DNA from: Acetatifactor muris
GTDB lineage: Bacteria > Bacillota > Clostridia > Lachnospirales > Lachnospiraceae
Direction: 5' to 3'
Length of the DNA stretch: 51,389 nt
Assembly: GCA_023664365.1 (NCBI GenBank)
Contig: JAMPFR010000018.1
Location: 1 to 51,389, forward strand
This document shows, piece by piece, positions 1-14,959 of this stretch (position 1 is its first letter; each line of letters starts with the position of its first letter). The position numbers and the translations under genes are program-made. Under the pieces are notes generated by a model, which was given only the letters and a program-made list of their open reading frames with translations, searched no databases and had not been told where the DNA came from.

Positions 1-47
1 AAAAAGTAGCATTTGCCCTTTTCTGTAAGAGTAAATGCCACTTTTTT
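1..47 (-). terminator. Rho-independent terminator of the five-gene defence operon
   Basis: The arms AAAAAGT-A-GCATTT and AAATGC-C-ACTTTTT form a hairpin with one mismatch. Read on the minus strand it ends in a T run, and it lies about 75 bases beyond the stop of the last operon gene. Because both flanks are A/T runs it could also stop transcription arriving from the other direction. Bases 48-120 hold nothing else I can identify. Confidence 0.75.
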
Positions 48-120
48 ATCAGCCGTTTTCAAAGTGGAAATAAACTTTTCACTTCAGCCAACGCATTTAA
101 TCGTCTGCAAATATGCTTTT

Positions 121-1740
121 TCAAGCGTCTGTTTTTGAAAAACTATCGTCTTTCATAATAGAATGAATCTGGCCTAAATATTCTTCCACAAATTGAACGG
201 ATTTACCTCCATACCTTAACTCATCACTTTCCAATTGCTTTCCGAATTCTTTTTCTGCCAATTCTTCATCACTCAAATATCCGTCTAATATATCCAGAAA
301 TTCATCCATATTCTTTGTGTATTCCTGTACGTCATCCCCCTCCATGTTACTATTTTTTTCTTTTAACATTTGAATCGTCATATTTCTTTCTTTTAAGAAA
401 TGGGAAATCAGCCAAATCGGATTATTCGACAAATTAGTTTGCAGGGATATATTCGGCAGATACTTCTGATAACACAGATATCCGCATACTTTTTCCAGAT
501 CCTCCGCCCTTTTTTGCACTGCGTGATAATCGTCAGGTATAACTTCTATCTGCTTGTAATAGTCAAAATCCAAGTAAATCTCCAATTCATTTTTGTCTCT
601 GTCAAACACTAATTTCAGATCATTACATAGACTCACATAATTTACTTTTTTGTTCACTATATCTGTTATCTTTTCATACTTTAAGCCACATTTGCAACTG
701 TACTCCCTTCCGTTCGGTTTTATGATACTTCCGCAGTTTGAACATTTCAAATAATTATGTTTTTCATTAATTACCAACAGGAAACGCTCCCATTCCTGAA
801 GATCATCGCACAGCCGAACCATATAAGACAACGGATCCTGCTCAAATATCATATAATCGTTTTCCAACCAATCGGTATGCCGAAAAATAGCCAAAGCAGA
901 TATTTCTACCATACATCTCTCCGAATTGTTCAAAGAAAAAATACTGCCGGCCGAATAAAAATTCAACAGAAAACTGATGGCCGATAGACAACCATGATCA
1001 TTTCTATCATATTTCGCTTCAATTTGATCCTCTTTTACCAATTGAAATAAAAGACTTTCTGCTAAGGCTGCCTTTATTTCTGTAAATGTAGTTTTTATAT
1101 GCGAAGATATAATCTTATAAAAGGGCGCATACTGATGAATCTGCTTTGCTTTACGCAAAAAATAATCCAAGGGATAACCAATGTCATGAAACATCGCACT
1201 GATAAAATAACTTTTATATAAAATCCGTTTTATTTCCTCCTTGTCTCTGCCAACCTGCGTTTTTATATACCGCGCCACAAAGTAATCCGAGGCGGAAATA
1301 CACTCCGTCATAGCATCTAAAAGACCATATTCCAGCATAAGAAGCGATCCCAAATAGGTATTACGGTATTGATGTTTGTAATGTTCGCGAATTCTTTTCG
1401 GCATCCCGGTTCTGGCATCATATTCCAAAAAAATATCATTCTCCAGCGAACCGTAATTATTTATCAGCAAACGCTCAATCCCCGGAATGCAATAATACTT
1501 TTGAAAAATACACAGGATATCGTCTGCCACGCAAAGTTCATTGCAGACTTCCCTGTCCGAATAGAAAGCTCTCCTTGTTTCATAAAGCTGTTCGAAATTA
1601 TAAAATGTCAAGCTTTTCTGCCAACTGTTTTCTTCTGAATTTTCAGCTTTCCTTGAGTTGAGAAAATCCAGCTTTCCTTCCAACAGACTGTGAAAATAAT
1701 CATACATTCCCTCATCATTTACAATCTTTTCTTCTTTCAT
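121..1740 (-). CDS. HD-domain phosphohydrolase-like protein with zinc ribbon; last gene of the five-gene operon
   Basis: This is a 539-residue protein. The full metal-binding pattern of an HD phosphohydrolase is visible: H123, H185-D186 in 'FHDIGYP', D248-H249, H288 in 'FRHTDW' and D312/D313 in 'RLCDDLQEW'. HD proteins hydrolyse phosphoester bonds, commonly in nucleotides or cyclic nucleotides; the substrate here cannot be read from sequence. A zinc-ribbon-like cluster follows (C333, C336, C349, C351), then about 180 residues without a recognisable domain. The start is preceded by AAAGGAAGG about 6 bases upstream. It lies 30 bases after the ParA-like gene. Its place at the end of an ATPase operon suggests an effector such as a nucleotide- or nucleic-acid-degrading enzyme. 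That role is inference. Confidence 0.75.
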   Translation of the reverse strand: MKEEKIVNDEGMYDYFHSLLEGKLDFLNSRKAENSEENSWQKSLTFYNFEQLYETRRAFYSDREVCNELCVADDILCIFQKYYCIPGIERLLINNYGSLENDIFLEYDARTGMPKRIREHYKHQYRNTYLGSLLMLEYGLLDAMTECISASDYFVARYIKTQVGRDKEEIKRILYKSYFISAMFHDIGYPLDYFLRKAKQIHQYAPFYKIISSHIKTTFTEIKAALAESLLFQLVKEDQIEAKYDRNDHGCLSAISFLLNFYSAGSIFSLNNSERCMVEISALAIFRHTDWLENDYMIFEQDPLSYMVRLCDDLQEWERFLLVINEKHNYLKCSNCGSIIKPNGREYSCKCGLKYEKITDIVNKKVNYVSLCNDLKLVFDRDKNELEIYLDFDYYKQIEVIPDDYHAVQKRAEDLEKVCGYLCYQKYLPNISLQTNLSNNPIWLISHFLKERNMTIQMLKEKNSNMEGDDVQEYTKNMDEFLDILDGYLSDEELAEKEFGKQLESDELRYGGKSVQFVEEYLGQIHSIMKDDSFSKTDA

Positions 1741-1770
1741 TTACCTTCCTTTCAACTTCTGCCATACTCT

Positions 1771-2661
1771 TCATCCCTCTTTTTGAGGCCATGAGTCATA
1801 AGCATCCAACCTGTTACTTAATTTAGCTTCATTCAGTATAATGCTTCCCCTCAGAAGATCTTCACTATATTTTTTGTAAAGAATATTGAATGAATGCACC
1901 TTTAGCGCCCGAGTAACATACTTTAAAATCTTCTCCCGCCTGAAAATAAAGGTTGGCTTGGTTTCTTCCTCTGCCCTCCTTGCCATTCCTTCACAATCAA
2001 ACAAATCATTTAAAAGCACCGTAATCGTCCTGTTATGCTGCCGTAAATAAGCGCTGTATTCGTTTATATTATCCACTGTCTTTCTGATATGCGATGCATC
2101 TGGCGTAGTGACATAAATTTCTTCTACCACTGTATTCCTTCTTTTATTTTTTTCTATTGTATATAATTCGTCCAAAATACTCTGCTCCACATAAGATATG
2201 CCCGGTGCACAGTCAAGCACAATCAGGGTCGTTTCTCCACACTGCATAATTTGATTAATCAGTGTCATTACCTTATTGCGAAAGATTCCTCCTTCCACAT
2301 TCGGATGCGCCCGAAGCCGATCCTGTCCCTCATAAGATTGCTTTATTCTTGACAGGGGATTCAAAACGGCTGCATAAAAGCGATTTCCCTCCTCATCCTG
2401 CTGAACCAGCTGTACCTTTTTAGACAATTTGAGGTTTGTCTCTTCTATGTCATTATAATAGTTCTGCCCCTTCTGATGGCTAATTGAAAGAGTATAATCC
2501 ACCCCCGTCCCCAATACATCCATATCAACATAATAAACGCTGCGATATCTCTTTTCCCTATACTCCGTTATACACCGACATAGGGCCGCTGTTGTCTTGC
2601 CTGCCCCTCCCTTGAATGAATTGATCATCACTATCCGATTCGGACTTCCTCCCTCTGTCAT
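1771..2661 (-). CDS. ParA/MinD-like (SIMIBI class) ATPase
   Basis: This 296-residue protein has a deviant Walker A motif, K17-GGAGK-T23-T24, the signature lysine form of the ParA/MinD/Soj family. It also has a 'VDMD' Walker A' segment (D46, D48) and a Walker B-like 'LIVLDCAPG' (D150). These proteins dimerise on ATP and switch partner proteins on DNA or membranes. No ParB-like gene or centromere-like repeat array is nearby, so plasmid or chromosome partition is unlikely. The start lies 1 base after the stop of the upstream gene, with a GGATAGGAGAG ribosome binding site inside that gene. Its co-transcription with the unknown large proteins and the HD protein suggests it is a regulatory motor of the system. 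Family call firm; role inferred. Confidence 0.85.
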   Translation of the reverse strand: MTEGGSPNRIVMINSFKGGAGKTTAALCRCITEYREKRYRSVYYVDMDVLGTGVDYTLSISHQKGQNYYNDIEETNLKLSKKVQLVQQDEEGNRFYAAVLNPLSRIKQSYEGQDRLRAHPNVEGGIFRNKVMTLINQIMQCGETTLIVLDCAPGISYVEQSILDELYTIEKNKRRNTVVEEIYVTTPDASHIRKTVDNINEYSAYLRQHNRTITVLLNDLFDCEGMARRAEEETKPTFIFRREKILKYVTRALKVHSFNILYKKYSEDLLRGSIILNEAKLSNRLDAYDSWPQKEG

Positions 2662-2662
2662 T

Positions 2663-5614
2663 TCACTCTCCTATCCTTTCGCATAAGCTTTCGTACAAAC
2701 CTTCCATTTTTATCCTTATCTGTTCATCTACAAGCTTTGTTTCTTCCGTTACTCGCAGAACTCCGGACAACATATCCTTTTTATAATATTCGCGAAATCT
2801 TGTAACAAAACTTCCATCCAACTCTTTTATTTCCTCAAAAAATTCCAGCATATCCAGCAATTCCATAATATCGGTATTTTTATAGAAAGAGCTTTCCTTC
2901 CGTTCCTGTATACCTTTTTCTACGGTGACTTCCAGATCTTCCGCCCCATATATGCTAAGCTGATGCAGCATTAGTGCCATGGTATAGTCCTCCACCGTTC
3001 CATACAATTCATTGATCAAAATTTCCCTGAATTTTCCTGCCAAATACCCTCTGTCTGCAAACGCATACTTCAGCGTCTCTTCCGCAAACATCTGGCATCT
3101 TCCCAATTCCTCATCTGTCAAATCCGCGTCCTTTACAACCATTATGCACTGAAAACAAAGCCTCCGTTCCGCATAAGACATCTGCAGAATAATTTCCTGT
3201 ATATTTTCCAATTCCAACAGTCGGCTGCAAATATTTTCTTCCCCGGAAAGTTCATCCAATACCATGCTCAGAGAAATCTGAATCGTTCCATTGCCCTGTT
3301 CCTTCAATTTCTGCCTGCTGTTCTGCTGTGAAAATGTCAAAATCACACTTTCATTTCCGCTTGCCCTGCTCTTTTTGACACAATAATTATTTTCCCAGTA
3401 AATATGACGCAGCAGATTCTCATTTGCGCTGATAATAACTGCTTCAAAATGTGGATCTTCTTTTACTTTATCGCTGATTTCCTTTACCCTTCGCAGATTC
3501 AGTTCCTGACTGCTCCACTTTGAAAGACTGACCTCACCTCCGTTCTGTATATGCTGCAAGGTATCCCATAAAAGTTCAACATAATTTTTCTCCTGAAAGA
3601 AAATATCCAGCTGCCTTTCAACATTAAACTCTTCCAGTTCCCTTTTTACTTCATTCGGATTATCCGTATACCGAACCATCTTCCGCGCATTATAAATTAC
3701 TCCTGTATCAGCAAAAAATATAATATCGCAGTTCTCCATCAGACCGCTGAGTTCCAGTTCGTTACTATCCTTCCTATAATGCCCTTGTATAAACCGGAAG
3801 TAAACATTTTCCACTTCCATGCCCAAATCATACAATTTGCTAAGTTCGCGCTTCAGTTCTCTTTCTTTGAGACTGACAATGTTAATCGTTATCCTGGATA
3901 TAAGATATTCATTGGCATTCATTATCTTTTGCAATTTCCCCAGCAAAAAAGATATACCGCGAAAATCATCCAAATCCACAATGCAGACCACCAGTTCCCC
4001 CAGATACGGATTCAACCTCAAATATTCTTCAATGATACCGTTAAACAGTCTAAAGTTCACCGGCGAATTCGATACTCGGCTTTCCTTTTCATAAAAGGTT
4101 ATCTTTCCCGGCGTTTCCAGACAGGAATAGTCCAACTGATACAGTTTACCCTTTTTTTGCAGAAATCTAATCGGAAACCATAATCTCTCCTGATTCACCA
4201 TATAAGAAGGGATATCTGATAATATATTCAGCCCGCCCGTCTCCCTGCATGCCGCTTCATATAATCTGTTCAACCGAAGAAAATACATACCCGCCGCCGG
4301 GTGATAAAACGGCATCTCAACATACCCCTCCCGAACCTTGCAAAACAATGTCTGCAGTTCCTCAATCAGTCCCGAACCATTACATACCTGGTTCATTGCC
4401 TCATCAGCCAGCAGCCATCCCAAGATTCTAAAATAATCCGATATGAATTTTTTCTGATTTTCACAATATTGAAAAAGTTTAACCGGCGTAATCTTTTGAA
4501 AATCCCCCCTCTCCAACGAACGATTATATTCTTCCAGCAACTCTGTCATCCACTCTTTCCACTTTACCTTTTTACCTGCCAGAATAGCATAATCATCTAT
4601 CAGCCCGCAAAGCCTTTCAATTTGCTTTCTTCCCTCAATGAGATCCTCGTCACTCGCAGAGAAAATATTATATGCTTCCTCAAAATATCCGCTCCCCTCA
4701 GATGATTCGGTTTCCGCGTTATTATCATCATCCGAATTTTCCTTCTCTGCCGCTTGAATTTCCTTCTCTGCCGCTTGAATATCCTCATACTCTTCCTTCA
4801 GATACATATCATAAGAATATCTGTATACTTTCTCCTCTTCCTGCTCCTTTTTCTGATTTTTCTCCGTCGGCTTTTTATACCGAAAATATTTTTCAATATC
4901 CTTATATTCAACACTCTTAAGCAGGCTTTCAATATCGTCCTTTGCCAGTGCCGACACCAGCCTTTTTCGCAGAGAATCCTCCAGTTTTTCATCCTCTAAC
5001 GCTTTCTCCAGCCTGCGGCGGACAAAGTCAGGTCTGGAATACTGAATCTGTCTCCTCAACAGGCCTTTCTTGGGATAGTCCCCTTTCGTCCTCCATACTC
5101 CGAAGCGATTTACCTCATCGTTCAGCTTTTCCCAGGAAATCTTTCCCTTTTCACTATCACACTGTACGCAATCTCCTACATAATCAATCAATTCCTTTAT
5201 TTCCATGGGTATATATTGAATCAATGTGTTCACATACTCTTTTAAATCTATTTTAACTCCATCTTCCAATCGAAAGACATTCGCCAGCAGTTTCCACAAA
5301 AGTTCTTTATCCTCAGGAATAATTGCACATTCCACAAAATCTTTAAGAGAGTCAATCCGCCTGACCGAATCACTACAGAGCAATACTATTTTTCTAAGTC
5401 CTTCACTGTTTCTGCAACGCACGGCTTCAGAATAGTCCGCCTGATCCACGCGTACCAGACAGCATCCTTTAACCTGAGGTATATCCGCGTCCTGCAGCAT
5501 TTCAGGCCCTATATCGTTAATTGCCAGAAACGCTTCTTCTTTTCCTTCCGTCAGAACCAGAATATACTGTTTAAGATACTCTGCAACAAGTTGAAATACT
5601 TTTTCCTCTTTCAT
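2663..5614 (-). CDS. Large protein of unknown function, core of the defence operon
   Basis: The start is placed at 5614, giving 983 residues, because ATG there overlaps the upstream TGA as ATGA. A start at 5686 is possible but would extend 76 bases into the upstream gene. I recognise no domain, no Walker A and no membrane segment. A highly charged, coiled-coil-like stretch lies around residues 250-310 (KNQKKEQEEEK and the repeat IQAAEKE), encoded in part by a 21-base tandem duplication. The C-terminal half is leucine- and glutamate-rich. It is the largest product of the operon and is likely a scaffold or sensor. A distant relation to the N-terminal part of DptH-type restriction proteins crossed my mind but cannot be supported here. 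Confidence 0.8.
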   Translation of the reverse strand: MKEEKVFQLVAEYLKQYILVLTEGKEEAFLAINDIGPEMLQDADIPQVKGCCLVRVDQADYSEAVRCRNSEGLRKIVLLCSDSVRRIDSLKDFVECAIIPEDKELLWKLLANVFRLEDGVKIDLKEYVNTLIQYIPMEIKELIDYVGDCVQCDSEKGKISWEKLNDEVNRFGVWRTKGDYPKKGLLRRQIQYSRPDFVRRRLEKALEDEKLEDSLRKRLVSALAKDDIESLLKSVEYKDIEKYFRYKKPTEKNQKKEQEEEKVYRYSYDMYLKEEYEDIQAAEKEIQAAEKENSDDDNNAETESSEGSGYFEEAYNIFSASDEDLIEGRKQIERLCGLIDDYAILAGKKVKWKEWMTELLEEYNRSLERGDFQKITPVKLFQYCENQKKFISDYFRILGWLLADEAMNQVCNGSGLIEELQTLFCKVREGYVEMPFYHPAAGMYFLRLNRLYEAACRETGGLNILSDIPSYMVNQERLWFPIRFLQKKGKLYQLDYSCLETPGKITFYEKESRVSNSPVNFRLFNGIIEEYLRLNPYLGELVVCIVDLDDFRGISFLLGKLQKIMNANEYLISRITINIVSLKERELKRELSKLYDLGMEVENVYFRFIQGHYRKDSNELELSGLMENCDIIFFADTGVIYNARKMVRYTDNPNEVKRELEEFNVERQLDIFFQEKNYVELLWDTLQHIQNGGEVSLSKWSSQELNLRRVKEISDKVKEDPHFEAVIISANENLLRHIYWENNYCVKKSRASGNESVILTFSQQNSRQKLKEQGNGTIQISLSMVLDELSGEENICSRLLELENIQEIILQMSYAERRLCFQCIMVVKDADLTDEELGRCQMFAEETLKYAFADRGYLAGKFREILINELYGTVEDYTMALMLHQLSIYGAEDLEVTVEKGIQERKESSFYKNTDIMELLDMLEFFEEIKELDGSFVTRFREYYKKDMLSGVLRVTEETKLVDEQIRIKMEGLYESLCERIGE
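4738..4779. repeat. 21-base perfect tandem duplication inside the 983-residue gene
   Basis: Two identical copies of TTTCCTTCTCTGCCGCTTGA plus one A lie head to tail at 4738-4758 and 4759-4779. They encode the doubled peptide EIQAAEK in the charged region. The unit length keeps the frame, so copy number could vary without inactivating the gene. Confidence 0.9.
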
Positions 5615-7170
5615 AGCAATCTGAACTCTCCCTTTGTCTCCGGCAATGTAACAATATACCCGCTGTCCGACAGCCTCACCAGACAATTAACACTGTCCAG
5701 TGTGTCCAAAAAAGCCTCTTCATTTTTTCCGAATTCCTGTTGCGTTACACGCACCTGATACTTCTTAAGCAGTTTATCGGTTTTCTTGTTTTTTCGGAGA
5801 TTGATTCCATAGCTCGTCTCCAGGAACTGCATAAATCCGTCTAAAAAGTCATAGGGCAAGTCCTTTTTTGCAAGATAAAGTCTTACAAGAAATGCTGTCA
5901 GTTCCCCGGACATGGCAAAATATTTAAATTTTGAGCGTGTCGGCGGATATACAAAGCCTATTTCTTTGCCGCTGCTTTGCAGCACACTGAAAATTCTTTT
6001 CTGGTTTGTTCCTGATATTTTCCCTGTCAATTGCAGGTAATATTCAACGAAATCTGCTATGGACAAATCCACATATTTCCCCGGTTCCAAGCCAAAAACA
6101 TTCTCCGCTTTTTGATATAGCTTGCTGTCATTCTTATACTTGGCGTCCAAAAAACGGTTTGCAAAATCCATCAGTTTCAAGTCATTGACACAAATTATTC
6201 CCTGTTTGTTAGAAACCCTTACAGAATCAATACGTTTCTGGGCTATCGATTCTTCCTGCTTTTCCCCGGTTTCACCTCCATGTATATCTGTTTCGCTGCC
6301 ATTTTTATCGGGATCCTCTCCGCCGTTTTGAGACGCCCCTTTCATTCTGTCCGCATAAAACTTAGCCAGCAAATTTGAAAAATCATCACGAAATGACTGG
6401 TAATTGGAAATACAGGCACGATGCAGTCCCCCTTCGTTCAAGCTGTTGCTGGTAGAGCCTTTACATAATAGAACAGGAGATTCCCTTACTCTGTTCACAA
6501 AAAACAGCACGACATAAAACGTCAGAAACACCGCCAAATCATCCAGTCTTTTATAGAAGTCCTGACTTATAAAATTATGATGTGTCAGCAGTATATTTAT
6601 ATCCTCATTAAACTGTCTGCTTAACACCCTGAAAAAAGAAATCTGCTTCAGATCCTCAAAACCGGAGGAACTATTTACCCTGCTGTCCCGTTTTTCGCCA
6701 TTTTCACAGAACCGGCTGACAATATTATAGATGCCTGTGGTATCTCCGTATAAATATTCATACAGCTTTCTCTGCATCTGTTCAGCATTCGAACGGTTTG
6801 ATTTATTACCGCAGGAAACCATATGATACAGCAAATGCCGTAAATTGATATTGGCGCTTCCCAACATATCCAGTGAAATCGGCATATATATTTTATCCTG
6901 CCCGCTTTTTATGCCTGACAGCAGCTCTCTTCCCGTAAAATATCGGAAAAACTCCTCAAAAGACCTTTTCAGGTCGTTTACGGCTTCCGGATCACTCTCC
7001 TGACAAACCAGTTTCTTTGAACGGCAAAACATCTCAAAACTGTAAGAATCCTCCTCATGCTTTCTGCTTTCGAAAAAATCTGACAGAAAGTTGTTTAAGA
7101 GAAGATATTTCGGCGTCTCCGGAGCGGAGACACCTACATGGGCCGCCAATGCATCTGTTTTTGAACTCAT
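5611..7170 (-). CDS. Protein of unknown function, second gene of the defence operon
   Basis: This 519-residue protein overlaps its neighbours by 4 bases (ATGA) at both ends, which implies translational coupling and a fixed stoichiometry. The N-terminal half is helical and contains an aromatic, hydrophobic stretch 'AVFLTFYVVLFFVNRV' near residue 220 that is more likely buried helix than membrane. A low-complexity linker rich in G, E, D and N lies around residues 275-305. The last 60 residues ('LDSVNCLVRLSDSGYIVTL') resemble a winged-helix ending but no fold can be assigned. Its size and position after a P-loop NTPase are reminiscent of DptG following DptF in phosphorothioation-dependent restriction loci. 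That comparison is from memory and unverified. Confidence 0.8.
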   Translation of the reverse strand: MSSKTDALAAHVGVSAPETPKYLLLNNFLSDFFESRKHEEDSYSFEMFCRSKKLVCQESDPEAVNDLKRSFEEFFRYFTGRELLSGIKSGQDKIYMPISLDMLGSANINLRHLLYHMVSCGNKSNRSNAEQMQRKLYEYLYGDTTGIYNIVSRFCENGEKRDSRVNSSSGFEDLKQISFFRVLSRQFNEDINILLTHHNFISQDFYKRLDDLAVFLTFYVVLFFVNRVRESPVLLCKGSTSNSLNEGGLHRACISNYQSFRDDFSNLLAKFYADRMKGASQNGGEDPDKNGSETDIHGGETGEKQEESIAQKRIDSVRVSNKQGIICVNDLKLMDFANRFLDAKYKNDSKLYQKAENVFGLEPGKYVDLSIADFVEYYLQLTGKISGTNQKRIFSVLQSSGKEIGFVYPPTRSKFKYFAMSGELTAFLVRLYLAKKDLPYDFLDGFMQFLETSYGINLRKNKKTDKLLKKYQVRVTQQEFGKNEEAFLDTLDSVNCLVRLSDSGYIVTLPETKGEFRLL

Positions 7171-8735
7171 GCTTCCGACTCCTTTTCAATCATTACCATA
7201 CTGCGGTTTCCAAACAGCATACTATTTTGCTCGATTAACTCCAAATTGAAATTCGTAAACCGCTTTTTCTTTTTCTCATCAAATCTGATATGCGCTTTCC
7301 TATATGTTTCCGGCATAGAACGCAATACTTTTCTGTAAAATGTATTCACCGTATATTCCTGAATAGAAACACCATTCCTATCAGTATGATAATCATCCGC
7401 AGAAAACATAAGAAACCTGAATAACGGATAATTTATCAGCATCTTTATCTCCTGTAATTTTGATTCCGTTTCACCCGGATATACATAGCTGAGATAAAAA
7501 CAATTTTCTGTTCCCGCAGAAAGTTCTTCCTTCCCCCGGTGCTGCAGATCCAAGTCATATCTTTTCCAAATTGTCTCCATGCTGCTGTCAATATCAAATT
7601 CCGTCTGAATACTTCCGTCAAATATACTGGGGGTATCGGCGACCGTCATTTTCAGATTTGTATTTCCCGCCCGGGTAATTTTGCTCAACCCGAGCTTCAG
7701 CTTCACCAAATTTTCATCTTCGCTATCCATTGTACTGAAAAAATACGGTTCCCTGCCATTGATGATATCCAAGACGGCTCGGTATTCCTTTATGTAATCC
7801 ACATACAAAAGCTCATACCTTTCGTCGGCATCGATCTCCGATTCAAAGAAAAGTCTTCTTTTCTCCGCCATGCAGTCTTCCCGGCTACTGTATTGCATAC
7901 CCGTATTTCTACTTCTTTTTTTCGCCGGATCCATGCTGTAAAACTTCTTTAATTGAAAATTCGTTGTAACGGCAAATATTTGATAATAATGAGGAATGGT
8001 TTGCCTGCCCGCCGCCTTACAGCTTTCGCAATCCTGCCCAAAAGTCACCATATAGGACAACAGAGATAAAAGCTCTCGAAAGGTAATGTGGCCTCCTGTC
8101 AGATAAACAGCATCACACAAGACTCTCAGCCCTTCCATCCCCTTATCCAACATAGCTATAATGTTCTTTCTGTATACACAATCTCCTTTAAAGGGGCAGG
8201 AAACATCCTCACACTCGCATTCCCTGTCAAAGGATAAAAACGCGCTTACAATATTCTGAAATAAAATCTTATCTGCCGCAAGATTTCTTCTTTCAAAATT
8301 TATGATATGCACATCTTCTCTTCCGCTTCTGATTTTTTTGAGTAACTCGGGATGCATCCGCAAAACTATTTTTGTAAAAATTCCGATATTGGCAGCAATT
8401 ATGTATTTTTTCCCATTCTCCCCCCCCAGAATTCTGTTTATTGCATCTATTAACTCATCCTTTTTCGCATCATTGATTTCCGAAAAATCCATGCATACTT
8501 CGAAATCATTCTTCTTTAACGGCTCTGCCAGATTACGCAGCAACCGTGTTTTACCGTCTCCTGCTTCACCCGTTAATAAAATAAATTTGACTTCCGAAAG
8601 CTTTTCCCTGACCTCCGCCTCCTCCGGCAGCGTTATATTAAAACTATCCATATTCCGCTCATCCATCATAAACGAATGTCCTTCATAGCTCCCACAGTAT
8701 TTAACAAGATTCTGAACCTTCTCTTTTATGTTCAT
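7167..8735 (-). CDS. P-loop NTPase with zinc-binding cysteine cluster, first gene of the defence operon
   Basis: This 522-residue protein has a clear Walker A motif (residues 56-63, GEAGDGKT) followed by an AAA/STAND-like layout: 'YIIAANIGIF' near 111-120 as a sensor-type strand, then a cysteine cluster C173-x-C175-x4-C180-x5-C186 likely to bind zinc. A second CxxC pair (C236, C239) follows. The C-terminal 250 residues have no recognised domain. Length, the 'GDGKT' loop and the order of elements recall DptF of phosphorothioation-dependent restriction, but no dnd modification genes are present. An in-frame run of eight G (8420-8427) encodes 'LGGE'. It opens the operon and has its own promoter. 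A nucleic-acid or phage-protein sensor is a reasonable guess. Confidence 0.85.
   Translation of the reverse strand: MNIKEKVQNLVKYCGSYEGHSFMMDERNMDSFNITLPEEAEVREKLSEVKFILLTGEAGDGKTRLLRNLAEPLKKNDFEVCMDFSEINDAKKDELIDAINRILGGENGKKYIIAANIGIFTKIVLRMHPELLKKIRSGREDVHIINFERRNLAADKILFQNIVSAFLSFDRECECEDVSCPFKGDCVYRKNIIAMLDKGMEGLRVLCDAVYLTGGHITFRELLSLLSYMVTFGQDCESCKAAGRQTIPHYYQIFAVTTNFQLKKFYSMDPAKKRSRNTGMQYSSREDCMAEKRRLFFESEIDADERYELLYVDYIKEYRAVLDIINGREPYFFSTMDSEDENLVKLKLGLSKITRAGNTNLKMTVADTPSIFDGSIQTEFDIDSSMETIWKRYDLDLQHRGKEELSAGTENCFYLSYVYPGETESKLQEIKMLINYPLFRFLMFSADDYHTDRNGVSIQEYTVNTFYRKVLRSMPETYRKAHIRFDEKKKKRFTNFNLELIEQNSMLFGNRSMVMIEKESEA
8420..8427. repeat. Eight-base C homopolymer within the lead ATPase gene
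   Basis: Eight consecutive C on the plus strand (G in the coding strand) fall within codons 103-106, just after the Walker A region. The frame is intact as given. Gain or loss of one base would truncate the protein to little more than its P-loop. Confidence 0.8.
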
Positions 8736-8806
8736 TTACATCTTCCTCTGTCTGATTCCATACACACCTGTAGTCTGTTGCTTTTACAAATTGACTTTAC
8801 AACACA

Positions 8807-8835
8807 ATTATATCTAATTATATTGTAAAATACAA
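8807..8835 (-). promoter_or_regulatory. Sigma-A promoter of the five-gene operon
   Basis: Read on the minus strand: -35 TTGTAT (8830-8835), 17-base spacer, -10 TATAAT (8807-8812). It lies about 70 bases before the ATG of the lead ATPase. The spacer contains the candidate operator described separately. The rest of the intergenic region 8736-9079 is AT-rich; apart from the sites listed I see no gene or RNA in it. Confidence 0.75.
8815..8830 (+). promoter_or_regulatory. Candidate operator, copy 1 (TARTTATATTGTAARA)
   Basis: TAATTATATTGTAAAA sits between the -35 and -10 of the five-gene promoter. It matches 14 of 16 positions of a second copy at 9053-9068. The arm TTTACAA at 8796-8802 is an inverted match to TTGTAAA (8823-8829), so the site may be part of a larger imperfect palindrome. 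Likely bound by the adjacent helix-turn-helix protein; this is inference. Confidence 0.5.
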
Positions 8836-9079: not shown

Positions 9080-9571
9080 GTGGATTCACAGGATATATTT
9101 ATAGATAATCTCAATAGATTAGCGGCATATCATAATTTAAATACTTATAGAGAAGCGGCAGAATATTTTAATGTTACCGAAGACGCGCTTAAGCATTGGC
9201 AAAACAGAACAAGATGTCCGTCTCTTAAGAGGCTTGATCAGATAAGCAATAAAATAGGATGCCGGTCGTATGCATTGATACAAAAAAATGGTGAGATTTT
9301 TGCAGAAATCGAATTTCCGAGAAATAATTCCAGAGAAATACTGATAAAAAATTTGAAAGAATATTTTTTGCAGGAAGGACGCTTTTCGTGGAATGACAAA
9401 GTTGCATTGTTTTACGGTTTTGTTAGTGAAGATGCCTTAAAATCTTATTTCCGAAAAGAAAATTTTAAGACACCGCCGTTAAAGAAATTAGATGAGATGG
9501 CGGCAGCATTAGGGAAACCAACCTATGAGCTGATTAAGGAGGCTGTGTCAGATGAGAAAAAAGATACCTGA
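9080..9571 (+). CDS. Small DNA-binding protein with two tandem helix-turn-helix units; likely regulator
   Basis: This 163-residue protein starts at GTG, with GAGAGGA about 7 bases upstream. The sequence is an internal duplication: residues 5-68 and 85-153 align, with 'VTEDALKHW ... PSLKRLDQISNKIG' matching 'VSEDALKSY ... PPLKKLDEMAAALG'. Each unit looks like an XRE/lambda-repressor-like helix-turn-helix. It overlaps the following methyltransferase gene by 20 bases and diverges from the five-gene operon. A role as controller of both transcription units, similar to C proteins of restriction-modification systems, is inferred from this context and from the repeated operator-like motif. Confidence 0.75.
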   Translation: MDSQDIFIDNLNRLAAYHNLNTYREAAEYFNVTEDALKHWQNRTRCPSLKRLDQISNKIGCRSYALIQKNGEIFAEIEFPRNNSREILIKNLKEYFLQEGRFSWNDKVALFYGFVSEDALKSYFRKENFKTPPLKKLDEMAAALGKPTYELIKEAVSDEKKDT

Positions 9572-11936
9572 AAGTTTAAAGATCAGATTAAACAAAGTGA
9601 AAGATGCTATTGAAAATGTGCCCAATATTGTTCCTAATGAAATGCGGACAACTTTCAACTTTAAAGGTAGAAAATCCCCGGTCATTGCAGAACAGGTAAT
9701 AGAAACAATCAGCACCAAAGATACTATTATGTTTGAGCCTTTTATGGGCTCCGGTTCATTTGTATATGCTGCAATGGGAAAAGTGAAAAAAATTTATGCA
9801 ACAGAATTGGACAATTATACCTTTAACGTTGTAAGCGTATTGATGAATAAAGTGGATATGCTTAAATTAAACGACTTGTTCAATACTGTCAGGAAAAACG
9901 CATATGGACAAATAATGGCTTTATATGAAACTTCTTGTTGTAATCGTAAGAATTATATAAGCAAGCTTCTATTCGACCCCGAAGAAGGCAAAGAAGGATA
10001 TTTTAATCCTTCTGCTAATAGGGAAATTGCAGACGGTAAAAATATAAAACTGATAGAAAAATGTCCGGTGTGTGGAAAAAGAGCCAAAAAATTTGATAAT
10101 GGCGATTATCAGAAACTGATGGATTTAGAAAAAATAAATGTAGAAAGGTTTCCCGGAAATCAATACATAGTAAACAGCAGAATTAATATCACATCATCCA
10201 CAGGCGCTGATAAATACGACAGGATTTTTACACAGAGAAACAAAATTGCATTATTGATTTTACAGGATACAATTAACAATCTGGAGCCATCAGACGAAAG
10301 AGATGTACTGGAACAGGTTTTGGCAGCTACTCTTTCACTTGCGCGAATTGCCATGTATGGCTCAAGTACAGATATATTGTATCATGTAGTGGGACATGGC
10401 GCACAAGATATGAATGTCTGGCTCCTTTTCGAAGAAAAGTATAAAAGCTTTTGTAAGTTCAAATCAGCCTATCGTGATAAACAGATTGGAGTAACAGATT
10501 CTGATGTAGTAATCGTTAATAAGGATTATGCATCGTATATTGAAGAAAACAGGGATTTAAAAGCAGACCTTATATACACCGATTTTCCATACACCGACCA
10601 GGTGCCCTATTTAGAGAGAAATCAATTATATCGCATCTGGCTGGAGAAATTTTATGATTCTAAATATGCATTAACAGAGGATATGTTGAAGCAGGAAATA
10701 GTTTTGACAAATGCAGAATCAAGGCCGGAAAAAAGAGATATTCGAAATTATTACAAAGATATTGACAGTATGTTTTTTCATTTCAATAAGGTATTAAATG
10801 AAGGCGGGCTTGTATTTCTTACAATGAAACTTGGAAAAGCAAAGTATTTTAAGACTTATATAGAGATTATCAATCTGGCCCGAAAAAATGGTTTTGAATA
10901 TGTTTATCAAATTGGGTTGGAGAAAAAAGACCCGACAATAAGGAAACAATCAGCATTTACAAATACGTTTATGAATGAAATGATAGTTGTTTTCTATAAA
11001 TTACCACAGAACGATAGATATTGGTACGTCGGTGATGAGAATTATGAGTTTTTACTTGTCAAAAAAGTATATTCCTATTTAATTCGAACAAAAGAATATG
11101 TGACATTATCAAGTGCCGTAACACTGGTCTGCAATGACTTGAAAGCAAAATATTCTCATTTAGCAGACGAACAGGATATATTGAAAATAAAAACATTACT
11201 GCAGCAGTATTTTAAGGTGGATGCGGGGTGTATACAAATTGACGGCAACCAGTTATATTTGGATATAGAAGAAACGACGGATTTGTATACAAAGCTGTAC
11301 GATCTAATGCCGATTTTTATCCGACAGCTTTTGGATAGTAAAGGAAAATTTGTATTGGAAGATATTTACTTTGAATTAGTAAATTCGTTATGTGACGGCA
11401 ATCCTAAAACAATTATACAAATTTTGGAAGATGAAAACCATCAAAGAGATATCAGTAATTTAATATTAAATTACTGTGAGAAAGACGGACAGTATTATGT
11501 TGAAAGAAAAGATATAAGAAAACCGAATGAAGATGCTGTTGATATATCAACATTAAGCGGCATTGATTTTGAAGTTCTGGTACAAAATTTACTGAAAAAT
11601 GAAGGATATGAAAATGTTGTAAGGGTAGGCGGGGCAGGTGATCTGGGTGTTGATATTATTGCAGTCAAACGTTGTCAAAACAGATTATTACACTACCTAT
11701 TTCAGTGTAAGAGGTGGGCTTCAAATGTTGGTTCTGACCCAATACAAAGATTATATGCTGAACGAATGAGAAGAGGATTGGATTATGCAGTTTGCGTCAC
11801 AACTTCCGGATATACGAAGGACGGTAAAAGGGTGGCATTAGACCTTGAGATTGAGATTGTTGATGGAAATCAACTGATGCAGCGCCTTAACAAATATTTC
11901 CCGGGAGAATACTATAATGGAATTCAGGATATGTAA
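9552..11936 (+). CDS. DNA adenine-type methyltransferase fused to an Mrr-like restriction endonuclease domain
   Basis: This 794-residue protein has an S-adenosylmethionine-binding motif I (residues 61-68, FEPFMGSG) and, unusually far away, catalytic motif IV D344-FPY, a DFPY variant of the usual DPPY. Between them lie cysteine pairs (C129-C130, C171-C174) that may bind zinc and the segment IFTQRN. Residues 664-794 form an Mrr-type PD-(D/E)xK nuclease: E674, GGAGDLGVD with D701, and Q718-C-K720. The enzyme may therefore both methylate and cut DNA, or cut modified DNA. The start has AGGAGG 9 bases upstream inside the regulator gene, so the two are coupled. Family calls are firm; target site unknown. 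Coding sequence is AT-rich like the rest of the island. Confidence 0.88.
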   Translation: MRKKIPESLKIRLNKVKDAIENVPNIVPNEMRTTFNFKGRKSPVIAEQVIETISTKDTIMFEPFMGSGSFVYAAMGKVKKIYATELDNYTFNVVSVLMNKVDMLKLNDLFNTVRKNAYGQIMALYETSCCNRKNYISKLLFDPEEGKEGYFNPSANREIADGKNIKLIEKCPVCGKRAKKFDNGDYQKLMDLEKINVERFPGNQYIVNSRINITSSTGADKYDRIFTQRNKIALLILQDTINNLEPSDERDVLEQVLAATLSLARIAMYGSSTDILYHVVGHGAQDMNVWLLFEEKYKSFCKFKSAYRDKQIGVTDSDVVIVNKDYASYIEENRDLKADLIYTDFPYTDQVPYLERNQLYRIWLEKFYDSKYALTEDMLKQEIVLTNAESRPEKRDIRNYYKDIDSMFFHFNKVLNEGGLVFLTMKLGKAKYFKTYIEIINLARKNGFEYVYQIGLEKKDPTIRKQSAFTNTFMNEMIVVFYKLPQNDRYWYVGDENYEFLLVKKVYSYLIRTKEYVTLSSAVTLVCNDLKAKYSHLADEQDILKIKTLLQQYFKVDAGCIQIDGNQLYLDIEETTDLYTKLYDLMPIFIRQLLDSKGKFVLEDIYFELVNSLCDGNPKTIIQILEDENHQRDISNLILNYCEKDGQYYVERKDIRKPNEDAVDISTLSGIDFEVLVQNLLKNEGYENVVRVGGAGDLGVDIIAVKRCQNRLLHYLFQCKRWASNVGSDPIQRLYAERMRRGLDYAVCVTTSGYTKDGKRVALDLEIEIVDGNQLMQRLNKYFPGEYYNGIQDM

Positions 11937-11967
11937 ACAAAAATGCGAGGTCCACTCGCATTTTTGT
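11937..11967. terminator. Bidirectional terminator between two convergent methyltransferase genes
   Basis: A perfect 13-base stem (ACAAAAATGCGAG/CTCGCATTTTTGT) with a 5-base loop begins right after the TAA of the methyltransferase-Mrr gene and ends on the stop codon of the converging gene. T runs on both strands fit termination in both directions. Confidence 0.9.
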
Positions 11968-14846
11968 TATTTCCATTTGGCTGTAGAAGAATCCCAAGTT
12001 AAATGTTTATCAAATAAATCGACTAAGGAAGAATATTTGTTTGAAAATTTAGCAAGCCAACCGTTTTGAATTAAAATTTCCATAAGTCCATTGTCATATA
12101 ATTCAGGAGTAGACAATGAACCGTTAGATTTTACCATAAACTTAGCCTGTCGGATTATATTATGTTCGATTTCAGATATATTTTCCTCAGAATTATGTTT
12201 TATCGGAACATTATCTTTTAAAAAAATAAGTACAGAGTCACCATTTAAAGACTTTTTGGGACTAATAATATTTTTTAAAGTAACATTCTTATCGATATGT
12301 ATCTGAGTGATAAATCTAAAACAATTTCGTTCCAAAATAGCAATCAGTTCGTTCCAAACAGTTAAATCAGAATCATGAAAATACAAACATAAATAATGAT
12401 TAGGCTTTAGTTTCCGCGAACATATACGAAAAACCTGTTCTAATAAATAAAAATAATCGCTCCGGTTCTTGCTGCGGGAAGGAGCAGAGGAAACAACTAT
12501 TTCATCGCTTAAATTGTAATCTAAATTTAAGAAAGGTTTATATAACTGCATATATTCGGAATATAGAACCTGCTCTAAATAGGGCGGATCCGTAATAATT
12601 AAATCTACCCCATTATCAGGTATATCCTTTTCTGTTATGAATTGACTGCCTTTCTGCAACAATAAACACTTGCCGGAAACCAGAGCGTCATATGATTCGA
12701 CAATTCCGGCATCAGCATAATGTTCTTTCATAAATGGGATAATTGCGTAAAATTTTCTGATTTTTTTAATATATATATCTATAATGTTTTTCTCAACGCA
12801 ATCCGTTTTAGGTATCCATAACGGCCATTGGGAATTTGAATGTCTATCCGTTATTTTACAAAGATGTAATATGGACATCAGAATATATTTTAAAATAGGT
12901 TGATACTCTTCATCGCGGTTATGAATGATACCCAATATTTCATCTAATACAGATAAGTTGCGCCCTGTAAAAATATTTTTAATGTCATCATTTTCTGTTA
13001 CCGCTATCTTTGTATTGCAAACCAAAGCAGTATCGCCGATATTTTTCATTTTAGGAAGCGTATTCATTCTTGCATAGTCTTCGTCATCTGCAGATTTAAT
13101 GCCCTTTTTTGTACACTTGCAGGTATAATTGATTGCTTTGATGATTATTTTTGATCCTGTTCTCTCAGGCTTGTCAAATATTACTTTTGAAATAGTTCCT
13201 GTTTGTTTACACATGGGACAGGTGGTTTCATAATAGCGGGTCAGAAAATTAAGTTCTGATATAAAATTTTCAAGTTCGCTTTTAATATTTGGAATAGTAT
13301 TAACAGATAATAATAATTTTGAAATGAACAATGGCATATCGTTAATATCACAACCAATAGCACAGCGCGACAAATCTGCCTTAATAGCTTCAAGGGCTGT
13401 CACTCCGGAACCAAGAAACGGATCAAAAATAACGTCTCCTCGATTTGATAAAGCGTCAATTAATGCATCACAGATATTAAACGCCTTTTGCGACCAATAT
13501 ATGTGAGAGTTATACATTGCATTATTTTTATTCGGCACTAAGTCACCTAACATTTTTTTAAGCGACTCAATATTGACTTGGGATAAATTTTTATCTCCGC
13601 ACAGAATCAAATATTCAATAACTTTTTTAGGTTCACTGTTTCTATGGTTTGCATGATTATATTTTTGTGTCACTACATTAACACGGGCACTGGTATAATA
13701 TTTTTGTGCGAGTTCCACTAATTCATCAATTGAAATTGTGTATCTGTCAGTGGCTTGTTTCTCTCTGTTCTGAGGATATGCATAACTAATAGCAAGGTTT
13801 GTGTGTGTATGGGAACAAAAGTCAATTAAATTTTCCAATGATTGCCTGGCCGAACTGCGTTGGCTTAGTTTCGACTGATAACGTCCCTCCGTATATAAAC
13901 CTTTAGTATAGCCGCTTTTAGTAATGGTTAATGCCGGATATTCATATTTAGCCGCCACATTCAGCAGGTGATAGTATCTGGAATATTGCATATCTGTATA
14001 AGGCGGATCCGCATAAACCAATCCCACATTGGAAAAAATCTTTTCATCCAACAATTCTTCAAAATCAGAATTAAATATAACATTCTTTCCTGAAAATTTG
14101 GAAAGTGGAACACCAATATATTCCTTAAATTTTCTGACAAATAAATCATATATATTTTTTTTGCGCTGCATAAATAGCCGGTTTTGGTTCTTTTCAAGGC
14201 TAAGAGGTTGAGCCATATGTCCGTCTTTGGAAAAAACGGCTTCTTTCATCGCAAAAAATAAGCACGAAAGCAACGCAGACTTATACTGCATAAAATGAGT
14301 ATTGATAATTTTGATGATACAATCAATATCCAACGATTGTATTATTCCATAGTAGTTAGTGGCATAATATGTTGCAAACAAATAGAAATCACCGGTTTCT
14401 TTTATAGTATCAACCGTTAATGGACCTTTTGTGATTTCAGAATAAAAATTGTTCCATACTGTCGGATATGAATTATAAAGTGCGGTTAGTTCTTCATAAT
14501 TTTCATCATCTAAAGCCTGCTGCTCATATTCAATATAATCTATAATAGGCTTTGCCAGCTTTCTAATAGCGGAGGTATATTCCAAATCAAATGAATGAAT
14601 CATGTCAGATGCAGAAATTATATCGGTTTGATTTAACATTGCATCAGCAATTATGCTTGCATAATACTCAACATCATTTGCATAAACTTGATAGTTATCT
14701 CTAAATATATTGCTGACAGCTGCGGAGCCGGAGAAAATATCTAAAATTGCCTTGCCGTCTTGTATATATGGTTCTATATTTTTTTTAATAAAGCTGCTAA
14801 GGTTATTTTTACTGCCCTGGTAGTTTAAAATAGTAAAATTCTCCAT
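11967..14846 (-). CDS. Double DNA methyltransferase (D12-like domain fused to a zinc-insert DPPY methyltransferase)
   Basis: The start is placed at 14846 (GGAGG 7 to 12 bases upstream), giving 959 residues; an upstream in-frame ATG would include the promoter. The N-terminal half resembles D12-class adenine methyltransferases: 'NYQGSK' near residue 8, motif I 'DIFSGS' (36-41), and catalytic D280-PPY. The second half has its own motif I 'DPFLGSGVT' (475-483), cysteines C543/C546/C576/C578 likely binding zinc, an IFTGRN segment (626-630) and D753-PPY followed by 'EIVVSSAPSR'. This half is clearly related to the methyltransferase-Mrr protein. The two active sites could modify the two strands of an asymmetric site. 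Convergent with the methyltransferase-Mrr gene. Confidence 0.88.
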   Translation of the reverse strand: MENFTILNYQGSKNNLSSFIKKNIEPYIQDGKAILDIFSGSAAVSNIFRDNYQVYANDVEYYASIIADAMLNQTDIISASDMIHSFDLEYTSAIRKLAKPIIDYIEYEQQALDDENYEELTALYNSYPTVWNNFYSEITKGPLTVDTIKETGDFYLFATYYATNYYGIIQSLDIDCIIKIINTHFMQYKSALLSCLFFAMKEAVFSKDGHMAQPLSLEKNQNRLFMQRKKNIYDLFVRKFKEYIGVPLSKFSGKNVIFNSDFEELLDEKIFSNVGLVYADPPYTDMQYSRYYHLLNVAAKYEYPALTITKSGYTKGLYTEGRYQSKLSQRSSARQSLENLIDFCSHTHTNLAISYAYPQNREKQATDRYTISIDELVELAQKYYTSARVNVVTQKYNHANHRNSEPKKVIEYLILCGDKNLSQVNIESLKKMLGDLVPNKNNAMYNSHIYWSQKAFNICDALIDALSNRGDVIFDPFLGSGVTALEAIKADLSRCAIGCDINDMPLFISKLLLSVNTIPNIKSELENFISELNFLTRYYETTCPMCKQTGTISKVIFDKPERTGSKIIIKAINYTCKCTKKGIKSADDEDYARMNTLPKMKNIGDTALVCNTKIAVTENDDIKNIFTGRNLSVLDEILGIIHNRDEEYQPILKYILMSILHLCKITDRHSNSQWPLWIPKTDCVEKNIIDIYIKKIRKFYAIIPFMKEHYADAGIVESYDALVSGKCLLLQKGSQFITEKDIPDNGVDLIITDPPYLEQVLYSEYMQLYKPFLNLDYNLSDEIVVSSAPSRSKNRSDYFYLLEQVFRICSRKLKPNHYLCLYFHDSDLTVWNELIAILERNCFRFITQIHIDKNVTLKNIISPKKSLNGDSVLIFLKDNVPIKHNSEENISEIEHNIIRQAKFMVKSNGSLSTPELYDNGLMEILIQNGWLAKFSNKYSSLVDLFDKHLTWDSSTAKWK

Positions 14847-14867
14847 ACATATTGCCCTCCGCATATC

Positions 14868-14896
14868 ATTATATAGAGAATAGCAGGAAAAAGCAA
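14868..14896 (-). promoter_or_regulatory. Sigma-A promoter of the double methyltransferase gene
   Basis: On the minus strand: -35 TTGCTT (14891-14896), 17-base spacer, -10 TATAAT (14868-14873). The predicted transcript begins only about 15 bases before the ATG at 14846, which supports that start over the one at 14957. Confidence 0.8.
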
Positions 14897-14959
14897 TTAC
14901 AAACAGAAAAATCCCTTTATTTTCTTCGCATCGAAAAATATAAAAGAATACCTTCAATC

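What the first reader, a model, noticed from the sequence alone, without database searches (positions are those of the whole stretch)
121..8735. Five-gene ATPase/ParA/HD operon as a candidate undescribed defence system
Seen: one minus-strand operon with its own promoter and terminator, 4-base or 1-30-base gene junctions, encoding a P-loop NTPase with a Cys cluster, two large proteins with no recognisable domain, a ParA/MinD-like ATPase without ParB, and an HD phosphohydrolase with intact H/HD/DH/H/D residues plus a zinc ribbon. Established: defence systems often pair sensor ATPases with nucleotide- or nucleic-acid-degrading effectors and lie beside methyltransferases. Inference: these five act together and the HD protein is the effector. 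I know of no named system with this set.
Basis: partly seen in the sequence, partly recalled or inferred. Interest (0 to 1): 0.88.

Follow-up and report, generated by a model that had tools for sequence, protein, structure and literature searches.

The report
Phage-defence-like operon with swapped effector
Five neighbouring bacterial genes form a mobile unit that looks like a known DNA-guarding defence machine (DndFGH/SspFGH) whose DNA-pumping and cutting end has been replaced by a ParA-type switch and an HD-type enzyme, a combination we could not find described.

Summary
The operon is real. Genes A-B-C-D-E (8735-121, minus strand) are complete and in the same order in 13 loci: the window and 12 others, one on a Calditrichota contig. 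Between two species the block is 93% identical while most of the flanks held do not align, so it moves as a unit. Three proteins gain relatives: A is DndF/SspF-like, B DndG/SspG-like, and C matches (modestly) the N-terminal half of DndH/SspH but lacks its C-terminal half, where the nuclease and HerA/FtsK translocase lie. D is ParA/MinD-like. E is an HD protein with all putative metal ligands and four zinc-ribbon cysteines invariant in 19 of 19 aligned sequences. D-E also occurs in a second architecture, X-D-E', X being a short C; the window's own genome carries both. Best reading: an FGH-type counter-invader system with a new effector module. Defence function and the effector's substrate are inferred. 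Phosphorothioate modification is not a general partner: dndC passes its cut-off in 1 of 19 genomes, the window's own. The paper searches made here found no description of this combination.

The parts
7167..8735 (-). Gene A: DndF/SspF-like P-loop protein, 522 aa, Cys cluster C175/C180/C186/C236; N116 conserved where Walker B would carry Asp
   Evidence: PADLOC SspF in 14 of 14 aligned A proteins; hhalign vs Ssp-type F 99.6% E 1.6e-24, vs Dnd-type F 99.1% E 9.6e-19; residues. Pfam's own label is nSTAND3, 28.8 bits against cut-off 27.2
5611..7170 (-). Gene B: DndG/SspG-like protein, 519 aa, PADLOC similarity in the C-terminal ~120 aa
   Evidence: PADLOC SspG PDLC02799 in 8 of 14; hhalign 95.8% E 8e-9 (Gssp), 95.9% E 5.1e-9 (Gdnd)
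2663..5614 (-). Gene C: 983 aa, related to the N-terminal half of DndH/SspH; Rossmann/methyltransferase-like domain ~495-767 without the glycine-rich SAM loop; no Walker A, no FtsK part
   Evidence: hhalign C columns 64-320 vs Hssp 91-387 E 7.9e-5 (61.4%), C 376-578 vs Hdnd 631-829 E 5.4e-5 (66.6%), reversed decoys under 1%; model and VIA matches; residues
1771..2661 (-). Gene D: ParA/MinD-like ATPase, 296 aa, KGGxGK[TS] with signature lysine
   Evidence: Pfam ParA 7.2e-6, 26.0 bits, just under its cut-off 27.1; K17, K22, D46, D48, D150, D188 in 20 of 20
121..1740 (-). Gene E: HD-domain hydrolase with zinc ribbon, 539 aa, likely effector
1..46 (-). Hairpin plus T run, likely intrinsic terminator of the operon, at the contig end
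   Evidence: fold -19.7 kcal/mol, z -5.65
8796..8829 (-). Imperfect palindrome overlapping a TATAAT, possible operator/promoter; no similar one seen in 13 other loci
9080..9571 (+). Neighbour, not part of the conserved block: HTH_3 protein
   Evidence: HTH_3 5.6e-5
9552..11936 (+). Neighbour: DNA methyltransferase fused to an Mrr-type endonuclease domain
   Evidence: Mrr_cat 1.2e-22, N6_N4_Mtase 1.6e-6
11967..14957 (-). Neighbour: 996-aa protein with methyltransferase domains, PglX-like

Best explanation
An FGH-type counter-invader (anti-phage / anti-plasmid) operon in which A (F), B (G) and C (a shortened H) form a DNA- and nucleotide-sensing complex. The part of H that cuts and pumps DNA (REase plus HerA/FtsK) is absent; two separate proteins take its place. 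D, a ParA/MinD-type ATPase, acts as the ATP-dependent DNA-associated switch or recruiter. E, an HD metal enzyme with a zinc ribbon, is the effector, most likely a nuclease on the engaged DNA. Shown: conserved operon, unit transfer, homology of A-B to F-G and (more weakly) of C to the N-terminal half of H, intact ATPase and HD residues, second D-E context. Inferred: complex formation, D as switch, E as effector, its substrate, and the defence function. My estimates: FGH-type core 0.9; defence 0.85; E the effector 0.75; E acts on DNA/RNA 0.5.
For: Order A-B-C-D-E complete in 13 loci: window, L009-L018, L020, L022 (L022 and L007 are the same contig stretch). Block 93.4% identical over 8.7 kb between L009 and L010, with the flanks not aligning apart from one 168-bp piece; downstream only about 560 bp of L009 was available. 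hhalign: A-F, B-G and C-H match, every other pair 12% or less, all reversed decoys under 1%. Plain tblastn of an A relative hits 8 plasmid records, one of them an annotated dptF, and six of the eight have an annotated FtsK or DUF87 gene downstream. C keeps an MTase-like Rossmann domain without the SAM loop, as described for DndH in PMC10853773 (section 21); A keeps the N-for-D Walker B and Cys residues like those described there for DndF (section 20). E's metal residues 19/19, D's ATPase residues 20/20. Defence or TA genes among ten hand-picked flank proteins: AbiEii, Abi_2, RelB, SIR2+NACHT, an MNT-type pair; also a serine recombinase and a phage integrase. SspFGH is experimentally anti-phage (PMC8092258).
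Against: No functional data. C-H similarity is modest (61-67% probability, E ~5e-5 to 8e-5; it was 84.6% and 2.9% for Dnd- and Ssp-type H with fewer sequences), PADLOC finds no family in any of 13 C proteins, and X does not match H directly. Pfam's label for A is nSTAND3, a broad NTPase family, above its cut-off. Flank genes were hand-picked, without a control. E matches no Pfam HD model above cut-off (6 of 19 members at all, best 0.067), and Foldseek gave no PDB match at E<=0.001. The system is rare: C in 2 of 398 phylum genomes, one the window's own. No general modification partner was found.
Confidence: 0.45

Rival explanations
1. Same FGH-like sensing core, but E hydrolyses a small nucleotide (dNTP or a nucleotide second messenger) instead of nucleic acid, giving abortive infection or switching a signal off, as an HD dNTPase does in Clover.
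For: Best structural matches of E are cyclic-nucleotide phosphodiesterases. One type II locus (L023) has a CYTH gene (4.8e-18) directly after E' and an SMODS-like gene (4.6e-5, 24.1 bits, below its cut-off 26.5) on the same strand. Nucleotidyltransferase-family genes lie downstream of E in two type I loci: AbiEii in L012, an MNT-type pair in L007. A distant E-like HD protein lies beside a TIR protein in L049. HD dNTPase effectors exist in Clover (passages of the preprint PMC12265719).
Confidence: 0.3
2. Not immunity: a segregation or maintenance module of a mobile element, with D as partition ATPase and A-B-C as DNA-binding partners.
For: ParA-type D; the block moves as a unit; recombinase and integrase near two loci; HerA/FtsK domains of H proteins relate to DNA segregation (PMC10853773 sections 21-22).
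Against: No tblastn match of window C or E in 72,556 plasmid records, none of E in 50,697 phage records, no confirmed relative of E in IMG/VR. F and G relatives are parts of restriction systems. Remnant loci suggest turnover as in accessory defence genes.
Confidence: 0.12
3. The unit restricts unmodified DNA and depends on a modification elsewhere (Dnd phosphorothioation, or the neighbouring methyltransferases) for self-protection, as SspFGH does.
For: F-G-H relatives; the window genome has dndBCDE with pbe-like genes on contig C98; two methyltransferase genes lie beside the operon.
Against: dndC passes the cut-off in 1 of 19 genomes with type I or II (8 of 19 have some match at E<=0.001, as do 5 of 14 controls). 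An SspD model rings in 7 of 19 and in 7 of 14 controls; of its nine hits one is the DndC and two were typed as BREX BrxP, the other six were not typed. A crude motif screen saw the methyltransferase pattern only in the window. Genomes are draft, so absence is weak. DndFGH is itself described as often decoupled from modification (abstract of PMC10853773).
Confidence: 0.13

Closest known systems
SspFGH (restriction half of SspABCD-SspFGH; PMC8092258)
   Same: Order F-G-H; A aligns with F over most of its length (99.1%) and at 99.6% with more sequences; B with G; C with the N-terminal part of H
   Different: C (983 aa) lacks the FtsK-like C-terminus (Ssp-type H here 1535-1810 aa); extra D and E; no general Ssp/Dnd modification partner found
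DndFGH / DptFGH (PMC10853773)
   Same: F features (N in Walker B, Cys insert), G C-terminal domain, a shared P-x-x-HP region in C and H and a SAM-loop-less methyltransferase-like domain
   Different: No REase-HerA/FtsK part in C (Dnd-type H here 1675-1858 aa); ParA/MinD and HD proteins instead; MinD, HD domain and HD phosphohydrolase do not occur in that paper's main text
Clover (CloA HD dNTPase + CloB NTase; preprint PMC12265719)
   Same: HD-family hydrolase proposed as immune effector; nucleotidyltransferase-family genes flank two of the loci (L007, L012)
   Different: Operon of F-G-H relatives; E has a zinc ribbon; E was not compared with CloA, nor the flank genes with CloB
MADS (PADLOC mad7/mad8)
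   Same: Weak PADLOC matches: mad7 to 3 of 14 B proteins, mad8 to window A at 0.0096
   Different: No MADS model among the PADLOC matches of C, D or E in the window; mad2 only in the neighbouring 996-aa methyltransferase (7.9e-12)

Membership tests
DndFGH/SspFGH | F-type P-loop protein | tested here: met
   hhalign 99.6% / 99.1%; PADLOC SspF 14 of 14
DndFGH/SspFGH | G-type protein | tested here: met
   hhalign 95.8% / 95.9%; PADLOC SspG PDLC02799 8 of 14
DndFGH/SspFGH | H protein with HerA/FtsK C-terminal ATPase | tested here: not met
   C 983 aa, no GxxxxGK[ST] in the two C proteins tested, window and G043; only the N-terminal half of H aligns; no PADLOC family in 13 of 13
DndFGH/SspFGH | REase domain in H | tested here: inconclusive
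   No Pfam family for window C; C aligns only before the H region that should hold it; a diverged nuclease was not excluded
SspABCD-SspFGH | Phosphorothioate modification genes as partner | tested here: inconclusive
   dndC over cut-off in 1 of 19 genomes, the window's own, on another contig; SspD-model hits in 7 of 19, six of nine hits untyped; draft genomes
HD metal-dependent phosphohydrolases | H...HD...H...H...D residues | tested here: met
   19 of 19; that these are metal ligands is recalled from the superfamily
HD metal-dependent phosphohydrolases | HD fold | tested here: inconclusive
ParA/MinD ATPases | Deviant Walker A with signature lysine | tested here: met
   K17 and K22 in 20 of 20; Pfam ParA 7.2e-6 but below cut-off
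ParABS partition | ParB and parS | not tested
   No dedicated ParB/parS search was made
Clover | CloA dGTPase with CloB nucleotidyltransferase | not tested
   E and CloA, and flank nucleotidyltransferases and CloB, were not compared

The most novel reading that the evidence does not exclude
D-E (ParA/MinD + HD-zinc-ribbon) is a portable effector cassette, plugged by an H-derived adaptor either into an FGH sensor (type I, A-B-C-D-E) or used alone with the adaptor (type II, X-D-E'). It acts on nucleotides or a nucleotide signal, and both forms can sit in one genome: a previously unrecognised family of counter-invader systems.
Probability: 0.3. Interest if true: 0.85.

Novelty: new variant of a known kind. 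Interest (0 to 1): 0.7.

Why it matters
DndFGH/SspFGH are read as machines that scan DNA and then pump and cut it through H. A natural version that keeps the sensing part but swaps the cutting-pumping half for a ParA-type ATPase and an HD enzyme would show that the FGH core is a general sensor that can be wired to different effectors. It gives a way to ask what F and G sense, in most genomes without phosphorothioation in the way. It also points to D-E as an effector pair to look for elsewhere.

Tried and rejected
Annotation libraries: Pfam, NCBIfam and PADLOC give nothing for C in the window and PADLOC nothing for 13 of 13 C proteins. PDB by sequence: no match for E, C or A alone; profiles gave none for C and B and only weak, unconvincing ones for E and A (E-values 0.03-0.5). 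Foldseek found no PDB match at E<=0.001 for E or C, and no BFVD match at that level for E; C was not searched in BFVD.

Rows set aside: L007 and L022 are one contig stretch, counted once. L019 and L021 are two contigs of one genome; C there is in two ORFs with a 144-aa ORF between, so it is not counted as complete. L029 and L030 hold only E remnants. Four weak E hits and three are partial and treated as distant HD proteins (the four were looked at, the three were not). Of the plasmid F-G-H records fetched, L057 (no annotation) and L059 were left out, and of L058 only F was used. Off the diagonal the largest values were A-Hssp 11.6% and D-Hssp 7.7%, both at the FtsK end of H.

Full report
CHECK OF THE OBSERVATION. 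The best start of C is ATG 5614, which overlaps the stop of B. A hairpin with a T run follows E (46-1; -19.7 kcal/mol, z -5.65, no shuffle as good); the simple scan, limited to short loops, did not list it. A promoter is not demonstrated: the consensus scan is close to its shuffles (35 against 27.0, sd 4.9) and upstream of A gives only a 9-of-12 match. The window is G000:C84:1-51389, and the operon ends at its left edge.

THE BLOCK RECURS. A first search with C in 398 phylum genomes found 2 with a match, the window's own and G043; G043 carries A-B-C-D-E in order (identities 21-35%). A two-sequence alignment of E was used to scan one genome for each of 84,980 species; the scan seeds on two short peptide patterns, 153 stretches matched and 22 loci were confirmed, so it will have missed diverged members. 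Iterated profiles of all five proteins on the ORFs of 60 aa or more of these loci gave: complete A-B-C-D-E in 12 of the 22 (L009-L018, L020, L022), to which the window adds a thirteenth; two loci (L019, L021) that are pieces of one genome with an interrupted C; six with D and a longer E' but no A, B or C (L023-L028); two with only E remnants (L029; L030, a 29-aa match). Because E was the bait, the search is blind to blocks without E. Ten of the thirteen complete loci are titled Lachnospiraceae, Blautia or Eubacterium, one is another Clostridia MAG (L022, the G043 contig), one is a 1.7-Mb Calditrichota contig (L020), and the window's own taxon is not told. Prevalence is low: 5 of 392 order genomes had any E-profile match, only G000 full length, and 4 of 296 in the phylum of the Rikenellaceae genome, only that genome full length.

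IT MOVES AS A UNIT. Between L009 and L010 the operon is 93.4% identical over 8736 bp and the alignment stops about 70 bp before A and about 190 bp after E; of the flanks only a 168-bp piece also aligns. The upstream flanks held were about 3 kb; downstream only about 560 bp of L009 was held. L029 keeps a 389-bp and a short piece of E, the latter part of 8 kb that is 97.6% identical to the right flank of L011: a decayed copy.

A SECOND ARCHITECTURE. In L024-L028 a gene X (694-839 aa) precedes D and E'; in L023 X lies downstream. X matches C over C columns 374-916 (hhalign 97.6%, E 3.1e-12), so X looks like C without its N-terminal third. The window's own genome carries X-D-E' on contig C93, and one Lachnospiraceae genome carries both forms (L017 and L024). 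In the E tree the seven type II sequences are one side of a branch with support 100/99, which suggests that the two wirings are old. Distant E-like HD proteins occur in four other genomes without A-D or X in the stretches fetched, one beside a TIR_2 protein. In L023 a CYTH gene (4.8e-18) follows E' directly and an SMODS-like gene (4.6e-5, below its cut-off) is the third gene after E'.

SURROUNDINGS. Ten hand-picked flank proteins were scanned: AbiEii in L012, Abi_2 in L009, RelB in L014, SIR2+NACHT in L016, an MNT-type pair in L007, a serine recombinase in L009, a phage integrase in L020; two gave nothing. This is suggestive, without a control. The window's own neighbours are a methyltransferase-Mrr fusion and a PglX-like methyltransferase; a crude motif screen saw no comparable neighbour elsewhere.

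PHOSPHOROTHIOATION. SspFGH damages DNA lacking phosphorothioate and is paired with SspBCD (PMC8092258, Results part 1 and Discussion read); DndFGH is described as commonly decoupled from DndABCDE (PMC10853773 abstract). dndC over its cut-off is present in 1 of 19 genomes carrying type I or II, the window's own, in a dndBCDE-pbe locus on another contig; 8 of 19 had some match, and 5 of 14 controls. An SspD model rings in 7 of 19, also in 7 of 14 controls; of its nine hits one is the DndC of G000, two were typed as BREX BrxP, six were not typed. So a phosphorothioate partner does not look general, with the caveat of draft genomes and untyped hits.

MECHANISM. I think A-B-C sense invader DNA or nucleotides as F-G-H are proposed to do, and that D-E replace the pumping and cutting half of H, with D as ATP-dependent switch and E as metal-dependent effector. 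The nuclease reading follows from what E replaces and from its zinc ribbon; the nucleotide-hydrolase reading follows from the PDE-like fold match, from Clover (passages of preprint PMC12265719) and from the single CYTH/SMODS locus. The data do not decide.

NOVELTY. Searches of the paper library: DndFGH with MinD (no paper); phosphorothioate/DndFGH/SspFGH with HD domain or ParA ATPase (14 papers with three terms, ten listed; in those ten HD domain and ParA ATPase occur nowhere); antiphage defense with MinD-like, ParA-like or HD (two papers, neither on such a system by title and abstract start); anti-phage, HD domain, ParA, five-gene, defense system (21 papers, 15 listed, of which I opened only passages of PMC12265719 and parts of PMC10853773). 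In the BREX survey PMC12839542 the terms HD domain, HD phosphohydrolase, MinD and SspF have no occurrence (passages). None of this describes the combination. The library lacks most subscription papers, so this is absence in these searches only. I file it as a new variant of the FGH kind, not as a member of DndFGH/SspFGH, because the HerA/FtsK part is missing.

Noticed in passing
L035 (G000:C98:25000-38793): The window's genome also holds a dndBCDE locus with pbeA- and pbeC-like genes, a separate phosphorothioate defence system.
   Followed up: partly
L046 4474-9912 (G000:C93): Second, type II copy X-D-E' in the window's own genome.
   Followed up: yes
L023 8694-17102: D-E'-CYTH-unknown-SMODS-like-X on one strand in a Rikenellaceae contig: possible nucleotide-signal link (SMODS match below its cut-off).
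   Followed up: partly
L049 7518-11111: Distant E-like HD protein beside a TIR_2 protein (15 bp apart, same strand).
   Followed up: partly
L021 5553-5987: A 144-aa ORF, transposase-like by eye, lies between two parts of gene C: the copy looks interrupted.
   Followed up: no
L029 10003-10481 and L030 10001-10078: Remnants of gene E; L029 shares 8 kb of right flank with intact L011, L030 shares one upstream gene stretch (542 bp, 71%) with intact L010: decayed copies.
   Followed up: partly
window 9552-14957: Methyltransferase fused to Mrr-type nuclease, next to a 996-aa protein with methyltransferase domains, PglX-like: probably a separate restriction-modification unit.
   Followed up: partly
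window 1-88: Contig end matches contig C117 (1-55, minus) and a 31-bp stretch (58-88) recurs at C117:202-232 in the other orientation; may mark the insertion border of the operon or only an assembly overlap.
   Followed up: no
L053, L054, L059, L058 (haloarchaeal plasmids): F-G-FtsK operons directly follow a DruA/DUF4338 gene.
   Followed up: no
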